From positions 1,798,001 through 1,862,000 of the forward strand of contig NZ_JPNB01000001.1 in NCBI RefSeq assembly GCF_000732725.1: 64,000 nucleotides of DNA, in the 5' to 3' direction. Source of the stretch: Kineothrix alysoides. GTDB taxonomy: Bacteria > Bacillota > Clostridia > Lachnospirales > Lachnospiraceae. Positions within the stretch are counted from its first letter, which is position 1; the number at the start of each line of letters is the position of its first letter. Made by a program: the position numbers and the translations under genes. Under the pieces are notes generated by a model. The model had not been told where the DNA came from. It was given only the letters and a program-made list of their open reading frames with translations, and searched no databases. Positions 14,173 to 23,356 of this stretch are shown piece after piece.

Positions 14173-14192
14173 GAAGCTAACTATTTATCTGC

Positions 14193-14302
14193 CTAAGGGA
14201 TAAAGGGGTGGATTCTCCGATTACAAAAGTGGCATTTCGTTTACAAATATTCAGTTGTCGATTACAAACCTTGCATCTCGATTTACAAAGTGGTTTCTCG
14301 TG
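14193..14302. repeat. Left phased repeat array beside IS30-type element
   Basis: TTACAAA starts at 14221, 14241, 14262 and 14283 (steps of 20, 21 and 21), each followed by a variable TGGCxTTTCG-like segment. The preceding 36 bases (14193-14228) recur at 15839-15874 with two differences. TTGCATCTCGATTTACAA (14271-14288) has a perfect inverted copy at 14334-14351. A further TTACAAA lies at 14421. See the matching right array. Confidence 0.75.
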
Positions 14303-14490
14303 TCACCTTTAGATTATTAAATTTTTTCCTCAATTGTAAATCGAGATGCAACCCATCTCAATTCAACTAAGAATTAATTAAGTAAAATATTATTTATACA
14401 CCAGGAGGTTGCATCCTGGCTTACAAAAGATTGGCTAATAACCAGTCTTTTTGTTTGCACTTTTATTTTGTTACATATATCCTATGATAG

Positions 14491-15826
14491 TTGGCGGCAG
14501 ATTGGAGGATATATGTCTAAATTTTTTACATATGAAGAAAGACTTGATCTGCAAAAGTTTCTAAAGGAAAGTCTTTCATTTAAAGAAATAAGCCGCAGAT
14601 TGGATAAGAATCCAACAACCATATCACGTGAGGTACGTAAGTATAGTTCTGAAATTGCCACTGGTTATCCCGGCTATCCATTCAACTTGTGTAAAAACAG
14701 ATTTAACTGTCGTAAGAAAGGCCTGTGTGGTAAGGACTGCACTCGTAAATCCGCACAGTATTGTAAACTATGTCAGTCCTGCAATCCGAATTGTGATGAG
14801 TATGTTGAGGAAGTCTGTACTGCCAGATTTAGAGTTCCGTATGTCTGCAATGGTTGTGACACCATAAGAAAATGTACATTGCTAAAAAATATATATGATG
14901 CAGAACACGCTCATATTAAATCCCATGAAACGATTACCCAGTCACGAAGCGGGCTATGCGTATCAGAGGAAGAAATCAGCAGGTTGAATAAAATCATCTC
15001 ACCATTAATTCAGAATGGACAGTCTGTAAATCAGGTTTACATCAATCATGAAGATGAGCTTATGTGTAGTGAAAAAACAATCTATAACTACATTGATGCA
15101 TGTATGTTTGATGTAAGAAATATTGATCTTCCAAGAAAAGTTAAGTTTCGTGAAAGATATAAAAAGCCTGAGTTCAAAGTTGATAAAGGATGCCGTATTG
15201 GTCGTAATTATGAAGCCTTTACTGCGTATATGGAGAAGAATCCAGATACACCTGTTGTACAAATGGATTCTGTTATTGGTAGCAAAGGTGGTAAATGCCT
15301 TCTTACGATTCATTTTGTTGAATGTAGTTTAATGCTTGCATTTGTTAGAGATGCTAATACTTCCAAATCTGTAACTGATATTTTTAATGGTTTGGATATA
15401 CTTTTAGGAAAAGAAGAATTCAGTCAACTTTTTCAAGTAATCCTAACAGACAATGGAAGTGAGTTCTCTAATCCAAAGGCAATTGAGTATCGTGAAACAA
15501 CACCATTATGGCGAACCAAAGTATATTATTGTGATGCTGGAAGTCCCTATCAAAAAGGTTCCTGCGAAGTAAACCATGAATTAATAAGAAGAGTCCTTTC
15601 AAAAGGAACAGGCTTTGATCAGCTTACACAGGAAGAAGTGAATTTAATGATGAATCACATTAATTCTTACAAAAGAAAAAAGCTGAATAATCGTAGCCCA
15701 TACGAAACATTCAGCTTTTATCATGGAGAAGAGGTTTTGGAAAAACTTGGATGCAAACCGGTAGCAGCCGGAGACATCATGTTAAAACCTGCACTTCTCA
15801 AAAAATAATTATTAACGTGCCGCCAA
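14491..15826 (+). mobile_element. IS30-type insertion sequence, ends tentative
   Basis: One transposase gene lies between the inverted repeats TTGGCGGCA (14491-14499) and TGCCGCCAA (15818-15826). A flanking ATGAT adds partial symmetry just outside each repeat. This gives an element of about 1.34 kb, reasonable for IS30. I could not identify a target duplication, and the longer flanking direct repeats at 14193 and 15839 leave open that the true element is larger and includes the left array. Confidence 0.6.
14513..15808 (+). CDS. IS30 family transposase
   Basis: DDE transposase of 431 residues. An N-terminal HTH_38 (about 5-45) has SFKEISRRLDKNPTTISREV. A cysteine-rich stretch (about 60-125: CGKDC, CKLCQSC, CNGCDTIRKC) may bind zinc, as in several IS30 relatives. 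The rve-type catalytic core has D in VVQMDSVIG, D in LTDNGSEF and E in GSCEVNHE. GGAGG immediately precedes the ATG at 14513; the 15-residue longer frame lacks a ribosome site. The gene is intact, so the element may still be active. Confidence 0.9.
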   Translation: MSKFFTYEERLDLQKFLKESLSFKEISRRLDKNPTTISREVRKYSSEIATGYPGYPFNLCKNRFNCRKKGLCGKDCTRKSAQYCKLCQSCNPNCDEYVEEVCTARFRVPYVCNGCDTIRKCTLLKNIYDAEHAHIKSHETITQSRSGLCVSEEEISRLNKIISPLIQNGQSVNQVYINHEDELMCSEKTIYNYIDACMFDVRNIDLPRKVKFRERYKKPEFKVDKGCRIGRNYEAFTAYMEKNPDTPVVQMDSVIGSKGGKCLLTIHFVECSLMLAFVRDANTSKSVTDIFNGLDILLGKEEFSQLFQVILTDNGSEFSNPKAIEYRETTPLWRTKVYYCDAGSPYQKGSCEVNHELIRRVLSKGTGFDQLTQEEVNLMMNHINSYKRKKLNNRSPYETFSFYHGEEVLEKLGCKPVAAGDIMLKPALLKK

Positions 15827-15838
15827 CCAATCATCTGA

Positions 15839-16090
15839 CTAAGGAATGAAGGGGTGGATTCTCCGATTACAAAAAAATCGAGAGGGAGTCGACCTCCCTT
15901 TGGCATGCCTGTAATTATCATAATACAGCAGAAAAAGCTGAAAATCAAACTGCATTTGGATTACAAATATGGCTTCTCAATTACAAAACTCTATATTTCA
16001 CTTACAAAAGTGGCTTTTCGTTTACAAAACTTTACTTCTCAAATACAAAAACTGCGTTTTGAATTACAAAGTGGCATCTCGCCTTACAAT
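15839..16090. repeat. Right phased repeat array
   Basis: After the 36-bp direct repeat (15839-15874), TTACAAA or ATACAAA units start at 15961, 15981, 16002, 16022, 16043, 16064 and 16084, with steps of 20, 21, 20, 21, 21 and 20. Each is followed by TGGCTTCTCA- or TGGCATCTCG-like bases. All point the same way as the left array. The gap 15875-15960 holds a short hairpin (AGGGAG/CTCCCT). The average period of 20.5 bp equals two DNA turns. Confidence 0.8.
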
Positions 16091-16172
16091 TCACTTTATT
16101 AAATTTTTTATCTAATTATTGCATTAACAATTTAATGTTTATCATTAAAAATCAATTGACATACGTTAAATT

Positions 16173-16631
16173 TCAGATTATATTATATTTATAATAAGAG
16201 GTATTGGCAGCAATGGGAGTAGAATCAAGACCAATGAAGGAAGTATCGATAACCCCTTCAGAGGCGAGCTTTAAAACGAGGGATTGCATGAGTGTGGATA
16301 AAGGCCCGTGTTGGAAATTTTTCAAGAAACGGTCGAAGGTCCAGTAAGAGGGCAAAGGGGAAGTGATATCAAAGCCGCAGTAGTGTGCAATGAGAAGGTT
16401 GTTGCCCAGATAATCGACCAGATCAGAAAGCATGGAGAAGCCTTCACATTTCATGACAATAAAAGAACAAATGAGTGCATGATTGGAAAAGCCTCTGCGT
16501 CCGGTGTCTGGATATTGCGGAACAGAAGAAAGGTCTAAGTTGAGGAAAAGGGAATCATAAAACTTAGCCGCAGGCTGCGAAGTGAAAAGACGGATATCTT
16601 TTAAAATTTCTTGACGGTAGATAGCAATCAG
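16173..16631 (-). pseudogene. IS4-like transposase, 3'-truncated
   Basis: An open frame begins near 16631 (non-ATG, possibly ATT at 16626-16628, after AAAGGAG) with IYRQEILKDIRLFTSQP, and reaches SYWTFDRFLKNF and SFIGLDSTPIAANT. The DSTPxxANT block carries the first catalytic Asp of this IS4/IS1182-like group. The chain stops at 16173 after about 150 residues, where about 400 or more are expected, so the rest of the DDE domain is gone. An upstream stretch to 16700 may hold the IS end. Confidence 0.7.
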
Positions 16632-22141: not shown

Positions 22142-23356
22142 ATGGCTATTGCAAAGGACCAATTACAACAAATTATTGCTGATAACGACATTAATAGTCC
22201 CAGTGATATCTATGCCCTATTTAAGGACAGTTTTAAAGATATGCTGCAGGAGCTATTAGAATCGGAAATGAATGCTTCAATTGGCTATGAAAAAAATAAT
22301 AAGGAGCATATGGACTCGGACAACAAGCGCAATGGATATTCTCCCAAAACCGTAAAGAGTCAGTATGGAGAAGTACAACTGGATATTCCCCGAGATAGAA
22401 ATGGGGAATTCGAACCCCAGATTGTTCCTAAGTACCAACGGGATATTTCGGGGATTGAGGAAAAAGTCATTTCCCTCTATGCCAGAGGCATGACCACCCG
22501 CGATATCCATGATCAGATTGAAGACTTGTATGGAATTCAAGTGTCAGCCGAAATGGTCAGCAAGATTACGGATAAGCTTCTGCCCGAAGTAAAAGAATGG
22601 CAGTCCCGTCCCTTGGAGCCAATCTATCCCTTTGTCTTCATGGATGCGATCCATTACAAAATCCGTGAGGATGGACGAATTTTGAATCGAGCAGCTTATG
22701 TGGTATTAGGCGTAAGTTTAGATGGGAATAAAGACATCCTGAGCATCAACATCGGGGCAAATGAATCCTCTAAGTTCTGGCTGGGTATGTTAAATGATTT
22801 AAAGAATCGTGGTGTCCAAGAAGTGCTCTTCTTTTGTGTAGATGGACTTAACGGATTCAAGGAAGCAATCGCCGCGGCCTATCCGCAGGCACAAGTACAA
22901 CGGTGTATCATCCACATGCTGCGCAATTCCTTCAAATATGTATCCTATAAAGACATCAAGAAGTTTGCGTCTGACTTTAAAGCAGTATACAAGGCACCCA
23001 CCGAAGAAGCAGCCCTTTCTGAATTAGAAGGAGCGAAAGAAATCTGGGGTAAAAAATATCCGTATGCAATCGCAAGTTGGGAACAGAATTGGGATGTTGT
23101 AAGCCCTTTCTTTCAGTTCAGCGAAGATATCCGCAGGATTATGTATACGACAAATATCATAGAAGGAGTAAATCGACAGTTTCGTAAGGTAACCAAGACA
23201 AAAAGTGTTTTTCCAAATGATACTTCCTTGGAAAAAATGTTGTACCTGGCGACTCAGAATGTAAAGAAGAAGTGGACGCAACGTTATCGTAACTGGGACT
23301 TAGTCTTAAGTCAGCTTCTTATCTTGTATGGTGATCGGATTAGCGAATATCTGTAA
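22142..23356 (+). CDS. IS256 family (Mutator-type) transposase
   Basis: DDE transposase of 404 residues, full length for IS256. Catalytic segments: D in FMDAIHYKIREDG, D in FFCVDGLNGFKEAI, and E in TTNIIEGVNRQFRKVTKTK. The family signature CIIHMLRNSFKYV lies between them. AAGGAGC precedes the ATG at 22142. The protein is identical to that of the inverted copy at 53196-54410, which implies recent transposition. It catalyses cut-and-paste or copy-out movement of its IS. Confidence 0.95.
   Translation: MAIAKDQLQQIIADNDINSPSDIYALFKDSFKDMLQELLESEMNASIGYEKNNKEHMDSDNKRNGYSPKTVKSQYGEVQLDIPRDRNGEFEPQIVPKYQRDISGIEEKVISLYARGMTTRDIHDQIEDLYGIQVSAEMVSKITDKLLPEVKEWQSRPLEPIYPFVFMDAIHYKIREDGRILNRAAYVVLGVSLDGNKDILSINIGANESSKFWLGMLNDLKNRGVQEVLFFCVDGLNGFKEAIAAAYPQAQVQRCIIHMLRNSFKYVSYKDIKKFASDFKAVYKAPTEEAALSELEGAKEIWGKKYPYAIASWEQNWDVVSPFFQFSEDIRRIMYTTNIIEGVNRQFRKVTKTKSVFPNDTSLEKMLYLATQNVKKKWTQRYRNWDLVLSQLLILYGDRISEYL

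What the first reader, a model, noticed from the sequence alone, without database searches (positions are those of the whole stretch)
14193..16090. Helically phased 20-21 bp repeat arrays on both sides of an IS30-type element
TTACAAA-led units recur at steps of 20, 21, 21 bp on the left (14221, 14241, 14262, 14283) and 20, 21, 20, 21, 21, 20 bp on the right (15961 to 16084). The mean of 20.5 bp is two DNA turns, so every unit faces the same side. All run in one direction, and a 36-bp lead sequence is duplicated at 14193 and 15839. Repeated sites of about this size are known at the ends of IS21 and Tn7, but an IS30 enzyme would not need them. This may be the remains of another element's multi-site ends, or a protein-binding array used as a target.
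Basis: partly seen in the sequence, partly recalled or inferred. Interest (0 to 1): 0.75.

Follow-up and report, generated by a model that had tools for sequence, protein, structure and literature searches.

The report
Jumping gene with multi-site right end
The repeat array is the right end of a small jumping gene that carries seven evenly spaced copies of what is probably its enzyme's docking site, while the array on the left is the leftover right end of an older relative beside which the new copy landed; it is an unusual branch of a known family, and its gene is also bracketed by a matching pair of sequences that change in step.

Summary
In detail: all unit positions and steps check out. The reading needs correcting. 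Four identical copies in the genome define one 1768-bp element (14328-16095) with exact 14-bp target duplications. The right array (seven units, 20-21 bp steps) is that element's own right end. The left array lies outside: it is the right-end relic of a related element, ending about one duplication from the new copy. So an IS30-type transposase does come with such arrays. Transposase relatives occur in 45 of 392 genomes of the order. In 27 elements scanned, the tip unit usually recurs inside the left end and after the gene, its letters differing by branch; one branch has expanded the right end to 5-8 units. Duplications are 13-14 bp, not IS30's 2 bp. Insertion beside related right ends recurs. 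Unexpectedly, the transposase gene is flanked by a short inverted repeat, one arm before the ribosome site and one after the stop, whose letters change while complementarity stays (102 of 134 loci). I read it as pairing between the ends of the mRNA; a DNA-level role is not excluded. Verdict: new variant of the IS30 kind, moderate interest.

The parts
14328..16095 (+). IS30-type element, 1768 bp, one of four identical copies in the genome
   Evidence: four copies align to exactly these ends, each with a 14-bp flanking direct repeat
14314..14327 (.). left copy of the 14-bp target duplication TTATTAAATTTTTT
   Evidence: identical to 16096-16109; different 14-mers at the other three copies
16096..16109 (.). 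right copy of the 14-bp target duplication
14334..14352 (-). L1: terminal unit at the left end, inverted
   Evidence: unit scan, used as its seed; inverted repeats I3/I4
14408..14426 (+). L2: second left-end unit, pointing inward
14425..14453 (+). hairpin with T run that could stop transcription entering from the left
   Evidence: read by eye; not flagged by the scan
14478..14483 (+). possible -10 hexamer TATCCT, which would place the transcript start at the 5' arm
   Evidence: 4 of 6 consensus letters
14490..14499 (+). 5' arm of the gene-flanking inverted repeat (GTTGGCGGCA), just before the ribosome site
14513..15808 (+). transposase gene, 431 aa, ATG start with GGAGG; HTH, twelve-cysteine region, DDE core
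   Evidence: NCBIfam transpos_IS30 8.2e-30, Pfam HTH_38, alignments, model, letters
15818..15827 (+). 3' arm of the gene-flanking inverted repeat (TGCCGCCAAC)
15854..15872 (+).
15880..15899 (-). terminator-like hairpin that could stop transcription entering from the right
   Evidence: consensus match only
15949..16089 (+). right-end array of seven units (starts 15949, 15969, 15990, 16010, 16031, 16051, 16071)
14176..14313 (+). relic of a related element's right end (region after the gene, R-inner, array), ending at or within about 2 nt of the start of the target duplication
   Evidence: 73% and 87% direct repeats; 84% over 89 nt to the right end of a Clostridium carboxidivorans relative, L082

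Best explanation
This is an IS30-type insertion sequence whose ends carry several copies of one site, most likely the transposase's: one inverted at the left tip (L1), one just inside it (L2), one after the gene (R-inner), and a run of seven at the right end spaced two helical turns apart. The likely working, in order: the transposase (N-terminal HTH, cysteine-rich region, second helical region, integrase-like DDE core) loads cooperatively along one face of the right array; the loaded right end pairs with the left end and the element moves, probably through a joined-end intermediate as IS30 does; it inserts with a 14-bp stagger (13 bp in many deeper relatives), sometimes beside the right tip of a related element already present. 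Shown: boundaries, 13-14 bp duplications, the repeated units and their branch-wise change, one main branch with the expanded array, insertion beside right ends. Inferred: that the transposase binds the units, cooperativity, the joined-end intermediate. Separately, the transposase gene is bracketed by a covarying inverted repeat that most likely pairs the 5' and 3' ends of its mRNA and limits translation or alters decay (inferred).
For: Four identical copies with four different exact 14-bp duplications. Of 99 loci with enough flank, 49 have a 12-18 nt direct repeat bounding inverted tips, against 63 of 9702 swapped left/right pairings; lengths 13 (21 loci), 14 (14), 16 (6), 15 (5), 12 (3). In 27 elements scanned from the tip pair as seed, an inward unit lies within 90 nt of the left end in 25 and a unit after the gene in about 23. 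25 of 53 end-defined elements have at least 5 right-end units in a chain with 19-22 bp steps; 18 of the 20 such rows on the tree lie in one branch (SH-aLRT 99), which also holds L104 (an array three units shorter than L102's in the same genome) and L087 (mis-chained). Three of 36 elements have a related right end within 25 nt of their left end; G095 has two copies in tandem one duplication apart; G019 has three or four right tips stacked in one direction. IS30 is reported to insert beside its own inverted repeats (PMC9333248, abstract and passages). Gene-flanking repeat: 53 clusters average 9.25 against a maximum of 6.63 in 10,000 re-pairings; 31 new clusters 9.60 against 6.90; 102 of 134 loci score 8 or more against 3 of 135 other genes.
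Against: No binding or transposition was measured. Long duplications are not typical of IS30 (2 bp), so the mechanism may differ more than assumed. 50 of 99 loci gave no duplication by my criteria. Deeper relatives have only one to three right-end units in the chain count (28 of 53 elements score so, L087 and L104 of the array branch among them), so a long array is not needed by the wider group. For the mRNA pairing: G-U against A-C mismatches are 15 to 7 (p = 0.13), only a trend that strand-biased C to T mutation could mimic; in related pairs 125 changes on one side break a pair, against 99 one-sided changes that keep it and 160 double changes that keep it; 32 of 134 loci score below 8.
Confidence: 0.82

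Rival explanations
1. The arrays are ends of another element (IS21- or Tn7-like) into which an ordinary IS30 inserted; the gene-flanking inverted repeat would be the true IS30 ends.
For: The inner inverted repeat closely brackets the gene, as IS ends do; IS21, Tn7 and Mu have multi-site ends (PMC10122671, passages).
Against: All four copies share the outer boundaries, with 14-bp duplications outside the array; the same kind of end recurs in relatives down to 38% transposase identity (L031) with unit letters that differ by branch; array size follows the transposase tree.
Confidence: 0.04
2. The gene-flanking inverted repeat is a pair of DNA sites (operators or inner transposase sites), not an mRNA helix.
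For: Transposases often bind subterminal sites (recalled); above 70% transposase identity the arms are about as well conserved as the end units or better; the G-U excess is not significant.
Against: Arm position is fixed to the gene edges (sd 4.0 and 4.6 nt) and not to the element ends (sd 21 and 23 nt; 27 elements); at 35-50% transposase identity arms are no more alike than shuffled ones (0.49 against 0.49) while end units still are (0.65 and 0.62 against 0.48); the best -10-like hexamer starts 8-14 nt before the arm in 30 of 64 distinct loci, where about 12 would be expected if evenly spread over the 36 positions searched, so the transcript should often start at the arm.
Confidence: 0.25
3. 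The array is mainly a regulatory or titration device (a sponge for transposase) rather than part of the strand-transfer complex.
For: Relatives with clear duplications have only one or two right-end units; array size varies within one genome (L102 against L104).
Against: The array is contiguous with the terminal unit, in helical register with it, and only at the right end.
Confidence: 0.14
4. The adjacent left array arose by tandem duplication or recombination between copies, not by insertion beside a related right end.
For: The G095 copies in tandem have matching ends and are separated by the duplication sequence, which unequal recombination could also give.
Against: In the window and in L016 the neighbour is a diverged relic (84% and 69% to the nearest known right end), not a copy of the same element.
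Confidence: 0.15

Closest known systems
IS30 family (IS30, IS1655, ISApl1)
   Same: transposase matches the curated IS30 model above its cut-off; HTH_38; DDE core; insertion beside related ends (reported for IS30)
   Different: multi-site ends with a right-end array, 13-14 bp duplications, twelve-cysteine region, gene-flanking covarying repeat
IS1630 of Mycoplasma fermentans
   Same: IS30-type transposase with long target duplications (16, 23, 25, 26 bp in four of seven complete copies, PMC3317919 passages)
   Different: IS1630 duplications vary in length and its ends are given as 27-bp inverted repeats; here length is 13 or 14 and the ends are multi-site; the original IS1630 paper was not held
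IS21, Tn7 and Mu ends
   Same: several copies of a transposase site per end (PMC10122671 passages); integrase-like DDE core (IstA 8b4h among the listed Foldseek hits)
   Different: no AAA+ helper gene in the element; IS30-type transposase; array of up to eight units in register
icaR mRNA of Staphylococcus aureus; hok mRNA
   Same: pairing of the 3' UTR with the 5' region at the ribosome site controls translation and decay (icaR: PMC3868564 abstract; hok recalled)
   Different: here the arms sit at the gene edges of a mobile element and complementarity is kept over a whole group

Membership tests
IS30 family | transposase matches the curated family model | tested here: met
   NF033563 score 104.4, cut-off 80, E 8.2e-30
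IS30 family | DDE catalytic triad and N-terminal HTH | tested here: met
   D254, D315 and E354 columns invariant in 58 sequences; HTH_38 5.4e-10
IS30 family | 2-3 bp target duplication | tested here: not met
   14 bp at all four copies; mostly 13-14 bp in relatives. IS1630, classed as IS30-like, also has long ones
IS30 family | single short terminal inverted repeats close to the gene | tested here: not met
   L1, L2, R-inner and a right array
IS30 family | joined-end (dimer or circle) intermediate | not testable with these tools
   needs PCR across joined ends; tandem copies in G095 are suggestive only
IS21 family | istA plus istB (AAA+) genes | tested here: not met
   the element holds one long gene, an IS30-type transposase
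IS21 family | multiple repeats at each end | tested here: met
   (works like, not member of)
Tn7-like | tnsB, tnsC and partner genes | tested here: not met
   none within 14328-16095

The most novel reading that the evidence does not exclude
A whole branch of insertion sequences folds its transposase message into a panhandle: the first nucleotides of the mRNA pair with a stretch just after the stop codon, kept by covariation, so that a finished message shuts its own ribosome site and only nascent messages are translated, a built-in per-transcript dose limit; the same elements grew a helically phased transposase array on one end only, which both orders assembly and marks resident right ends as landing sites.
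Probability: 0.4. Interest if true: 0.72.

Novelty: new variant of a known kind. Interest (0 to 1): 0.55.

Why it matters
What the extra terminal repeats of Tn7 do is called an open question in PMC10122671 (passages). Here the number of right-end units varies naturally from one or two to eight within a single-gene group without an ATPase helper in the element, even between copies in one genome, so array length could be tested in a minimal system. Duplications of 13 and 14 bp that differ by branch offer a handle on what sets target spacing. The covarying gene-flanking repeat, if it is an mRNA helix, would be a self-contained transposase dose control found by comparison alone.

Tried and rejected
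Rejected: arrays as random AT-rich matches; the right array as part of a foreign element; the inner inverted repeat as the moving ends; a guide role of the gene-flanking repeat in choosing targets (four different targets for one identical element). Led nowhere: viral-contig scan with the protein (no match); PDB sequence search (one irrelevant hit at E 0.099). Plasmid and phage records hold few relatives: 2 plasmid records at 29-38% identity and 6 phage records at 38-58% (E limit 1e-30). Literature searches for an array-bearing or 13-14 bp IS30 group, or for a transposase-mRNA panhandle: none in the rows listed, which were only the top of some lists (15 of 728, 15 of 22, 10 of 14). ISfinder cannot be searched here, so elements of this branch may already be catalogued there.

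Limits of my own tests: the unit scan is seeded with the two tips, so those two are found by construction, its threshold (mean of the best shuffled score) is loose, and it takes the wrong register or strand in L087 and partly in L093, L102 and L104; it finds no inward left unit in L093 and L104 and no clear unit after the gene in L065b, L087, L118 and L146. The chain count fails for L087, and shuffles reach 3 or 4 in a few elements (L155: chain 5, best shuffle 4). The 36 elements were chosen by me as clear cases; the unchosen test is. The 30 mRNAs folded were chosen for good repeats, so 27 of 30 with mean stem probability above 0.5 shows that the pairing is feasible, not how frequent it is. 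Loci in the second set were picked by me from the places. Genome tallies score at most 4 candidates a genome and are lower bounds.

Full report
What is there. Searching the genome (4.68 Mb, 3 contigs) with the left array gave 14 places, which group into four full copies of one element, their neighbouring relics, and a decayed copy. Aligning the four copies with their flanks shows that they are identical over 1768 bp, window 14328-16095, and that each is bounded by a different exact 14-bp direct repeat: TTATTAAATTTTTT here, TGTTGCATTAAACA, GAGTTAAATATTAT and GAAGCGGAAGAAAT elsewhere. The tips are inverted repeats of each other. The right array is thus the right end of the element. The left array is outside: it aligns without gaps to the right end (73% over 107 nt; 84% over 89 nt to the right end of L082 from Clostridium carboxidivorans), and in that register the tip of the old element falls at the start of the 14-bp duplication.

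The protein. The gene at 14513-15808 encodes 431 aa: HTH_38, a region with twelve cysteines between residues 60 and 121 (of these columns eight are invariant and four nearly so among 58 aligned relatives), and a DDE core. NCBIfam calls it IS30 (104.4 bits, cut-off 80). An AlphaFold2 model has mean pLDDT 86 and pTM 0.65; Foldseek against the PDB matches its core to retroviral integrases and, at rank 30, IstA, with whole-query TM-scores below 0.3, so only the catalytic core is recognised. Eleven canonical IS30 proteins from the own and related genomes (13 loci tried, two without a usable gene, some near-copies) have 2 to 11 cysteines in 341-379 aa.

Relatives. In two draws, 45 of 392 genomes of the order and 38 of 391 of the class, own genome included and some genomes shared, have a match at 1e-60 or better.

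Target duplications. Without choosing loci, 49 of 99 with at least 400 nt left and 500 nt right of the gene have a 12-18 nt direct repeat that bounds inverted tips, against 63 of 9702 when left and right flanks are swapped between loci; lengths are 13 (21), 14 (14), 16 (6), 15 (5), 12 (3). Chance lengthening can explain 15-16: the four identical window copies give raw 14, 15, 16, 14. Elements nearest the window's never give less than 14 while many deeper ones give 13; several single deeper copies also read 14, which chance lengthening would allow.

End structure. A unit scan seeded with the two tips, in 27 elements, finds an inward unit within 90 nt of the left end in 25 and a unit after the stop codon in about 23, besides the units up to the right tip (its weaknesses are listed under what was tried). 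The unit reads roughly GTNGCATCTCG..TTACAA near the window, GGGANTCTCG..TTACAA in L093 and L102, GGTGGAATTTA..CTTACA in L138, GGTCTAATTTAGTCTTACA in L220: it changes between branches but agrees within an element, as binding sites of a diverging transposase should (binding itself is inferred). A chain of five or more right units with steps of 19-22 bp occurs in 25 of 53 end-defined elements; shuffles average 1.0-1.3 and reach at most 4. On a tree of 48 of these plus 3 canonical IS30 proteins (five elements without a usable intact frame left out), 18 of 20 such rows share one branch (SH-aLRT 99, quick method, no bootstrap); L155 and L224 are outside, and L155 is AT-rich and may be a false count. 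L102 and L104, in one genome, have chains of six and three.

Landing beside right ends. Of 36 end-defined elements, three have a related right end against their left end (window, L016, L065b); on the right side the only hit was an 18-nt inverted match at L085, about 60 nt away. In the window and in G095 the spacing is about one duplication; in L016 the duplicated 14 bp appear to be the tip of the relic itself, judged by eye. L080 carries a 27-nt fragment of its own right tip before its left end. In G019 three or four right tips, matching L084-, L135- and (47 nt, 77%) L093-type ends, are stacked in one direction with no transposase match in the 2.5 kb read; G062 has a lone right array, no transposase match in 3.1 kb. 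IS30 is reported to insert into hot spots or next to its own inverted repeats, with 2-bp duplications in the first case (PMC9333248, abstract and passages), so end targeting is probably shared. Array-based searching favours finding right ends, so I do not claim that right ends outlast left ends.

Gene-flanking inverted repeat. In the window GTTGGCGGCA lies just before the ribosome site and TGCCGCCAAC nine nt after the stop. In relatives the arms occupy the same places with other letters, for example TGTGCTGCTGGTAT with ATACCAGCAGCACA in L138. In the first set (87 loci, 53 clusters) own arms score 9.25 on average; 10,000 random re-pairings never exceed 6.63; 30 of 53 score 9 or more against 2.8% of swapped pairs. 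In a second set (52 loci; 5 without a usable start; 6 dropped as like the first set; 31 clusters) 9.60 against at most 6.90. In all, 102 of 134 loci, near-copies included, score 8 or more, against 3 of 135 other ribosome-site-led genes from the window and long loci. Of 11 canonical IS30 controls one, L169, scores above 8, and its arm is part of its terminal repeat. Pairwise comparison in one register, among related and therefore not independent pairs, counts 160 double changes that keep pairing and 39 that do not, 99 single changes that keep it and 125 that break it.

RNA or DNA? For RNA: arms keep their distance to the gene and not to the element ends (27 elements); at 35-50% transposase identity arms are no more similar than chance although the end units still are (35 elements, 595 pairs); the best -10-like hexamer starts 8-14 nt before the arm in 30 of 64 distinct loci, so the message would begin at the arm there, while in 19 of 64 it starts 20-26 nt before, which would put the start some ten nt upstream (consensus matching only); the stem is predicted in 27 of 30 chosen mRNAs. 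Undecided: mismatches that a G-U pair would tolerate outnumber the reverse 15 to 7, p = 0.13. Against: above 70% identity the arm letters are about as well conserved as the end units or better. I hold an mRNA role at about 0.6-0.65 and the specific dose-limiting mechanism, together with the array model, at about 0.4. Pairing of a 3' UTR with the ribosome-site region that blocks translation is known for icaR of S. aureus (PMC3868564, abstract).

Verdict. The feature is real and the element looks intact and recently active (four identical copies; activity inferred). It has an IS30-type transposase but departs from the family in duplication length and end structure, so I call it a new variant of a known kind. 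None of the rows listed in my literature searches describes this branch, but ISfinder could not be consulted.

Noticed in passing
14425-14453 and 15880-15899: Inward-facing terminator-like hairpins lie on both sides of the transposase gene (the left one seen by eye, the right one on the minus strand flagged); they could shield it from outside transcription.
   Followed up: partly
L240 about 550-1060 (G019:C10): Three or four right ends of different subfamilies stacked in one direction, with no transposase match nearby: a repeated landing site.
   Followed up: partly
L065 1797-5339 (G095): Two copies in tandem separated by one target duplication (15-16 nt); a third, inverted copy (L064) has no duplication by my search.
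   Followed up: partly
L031 and L032 (C2:1369k and C2:1609k of the own genome): A second, 38% identical element of the group; both copies sit in nearly the same 15-nt target (CCCTGGATAATTTTG and CCCGGATAATTTTGG), which suggests target preference.
   Followed up: no
16173-16454 minus: Fragment of an IS1182-type transposase directly right of the element.
   Followed up: no
22142-23356: IS256-family transposase, near full length.
   Followed up: no
L168 (G084): A canonical-size IS30 protein with 11 cysteines and a terminal repeat beginning AATTGTAAAATGAAATTG, much like this branch's tip: perhaps an intermediate.
   Followed up: no
L146, L147, L138 and others, left ends: In several deeper relatives the inward left-end unit lies directly upstream of the best -10-like hexamer, where it could act as an operator for the transposase promoter.
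   Followed up: no
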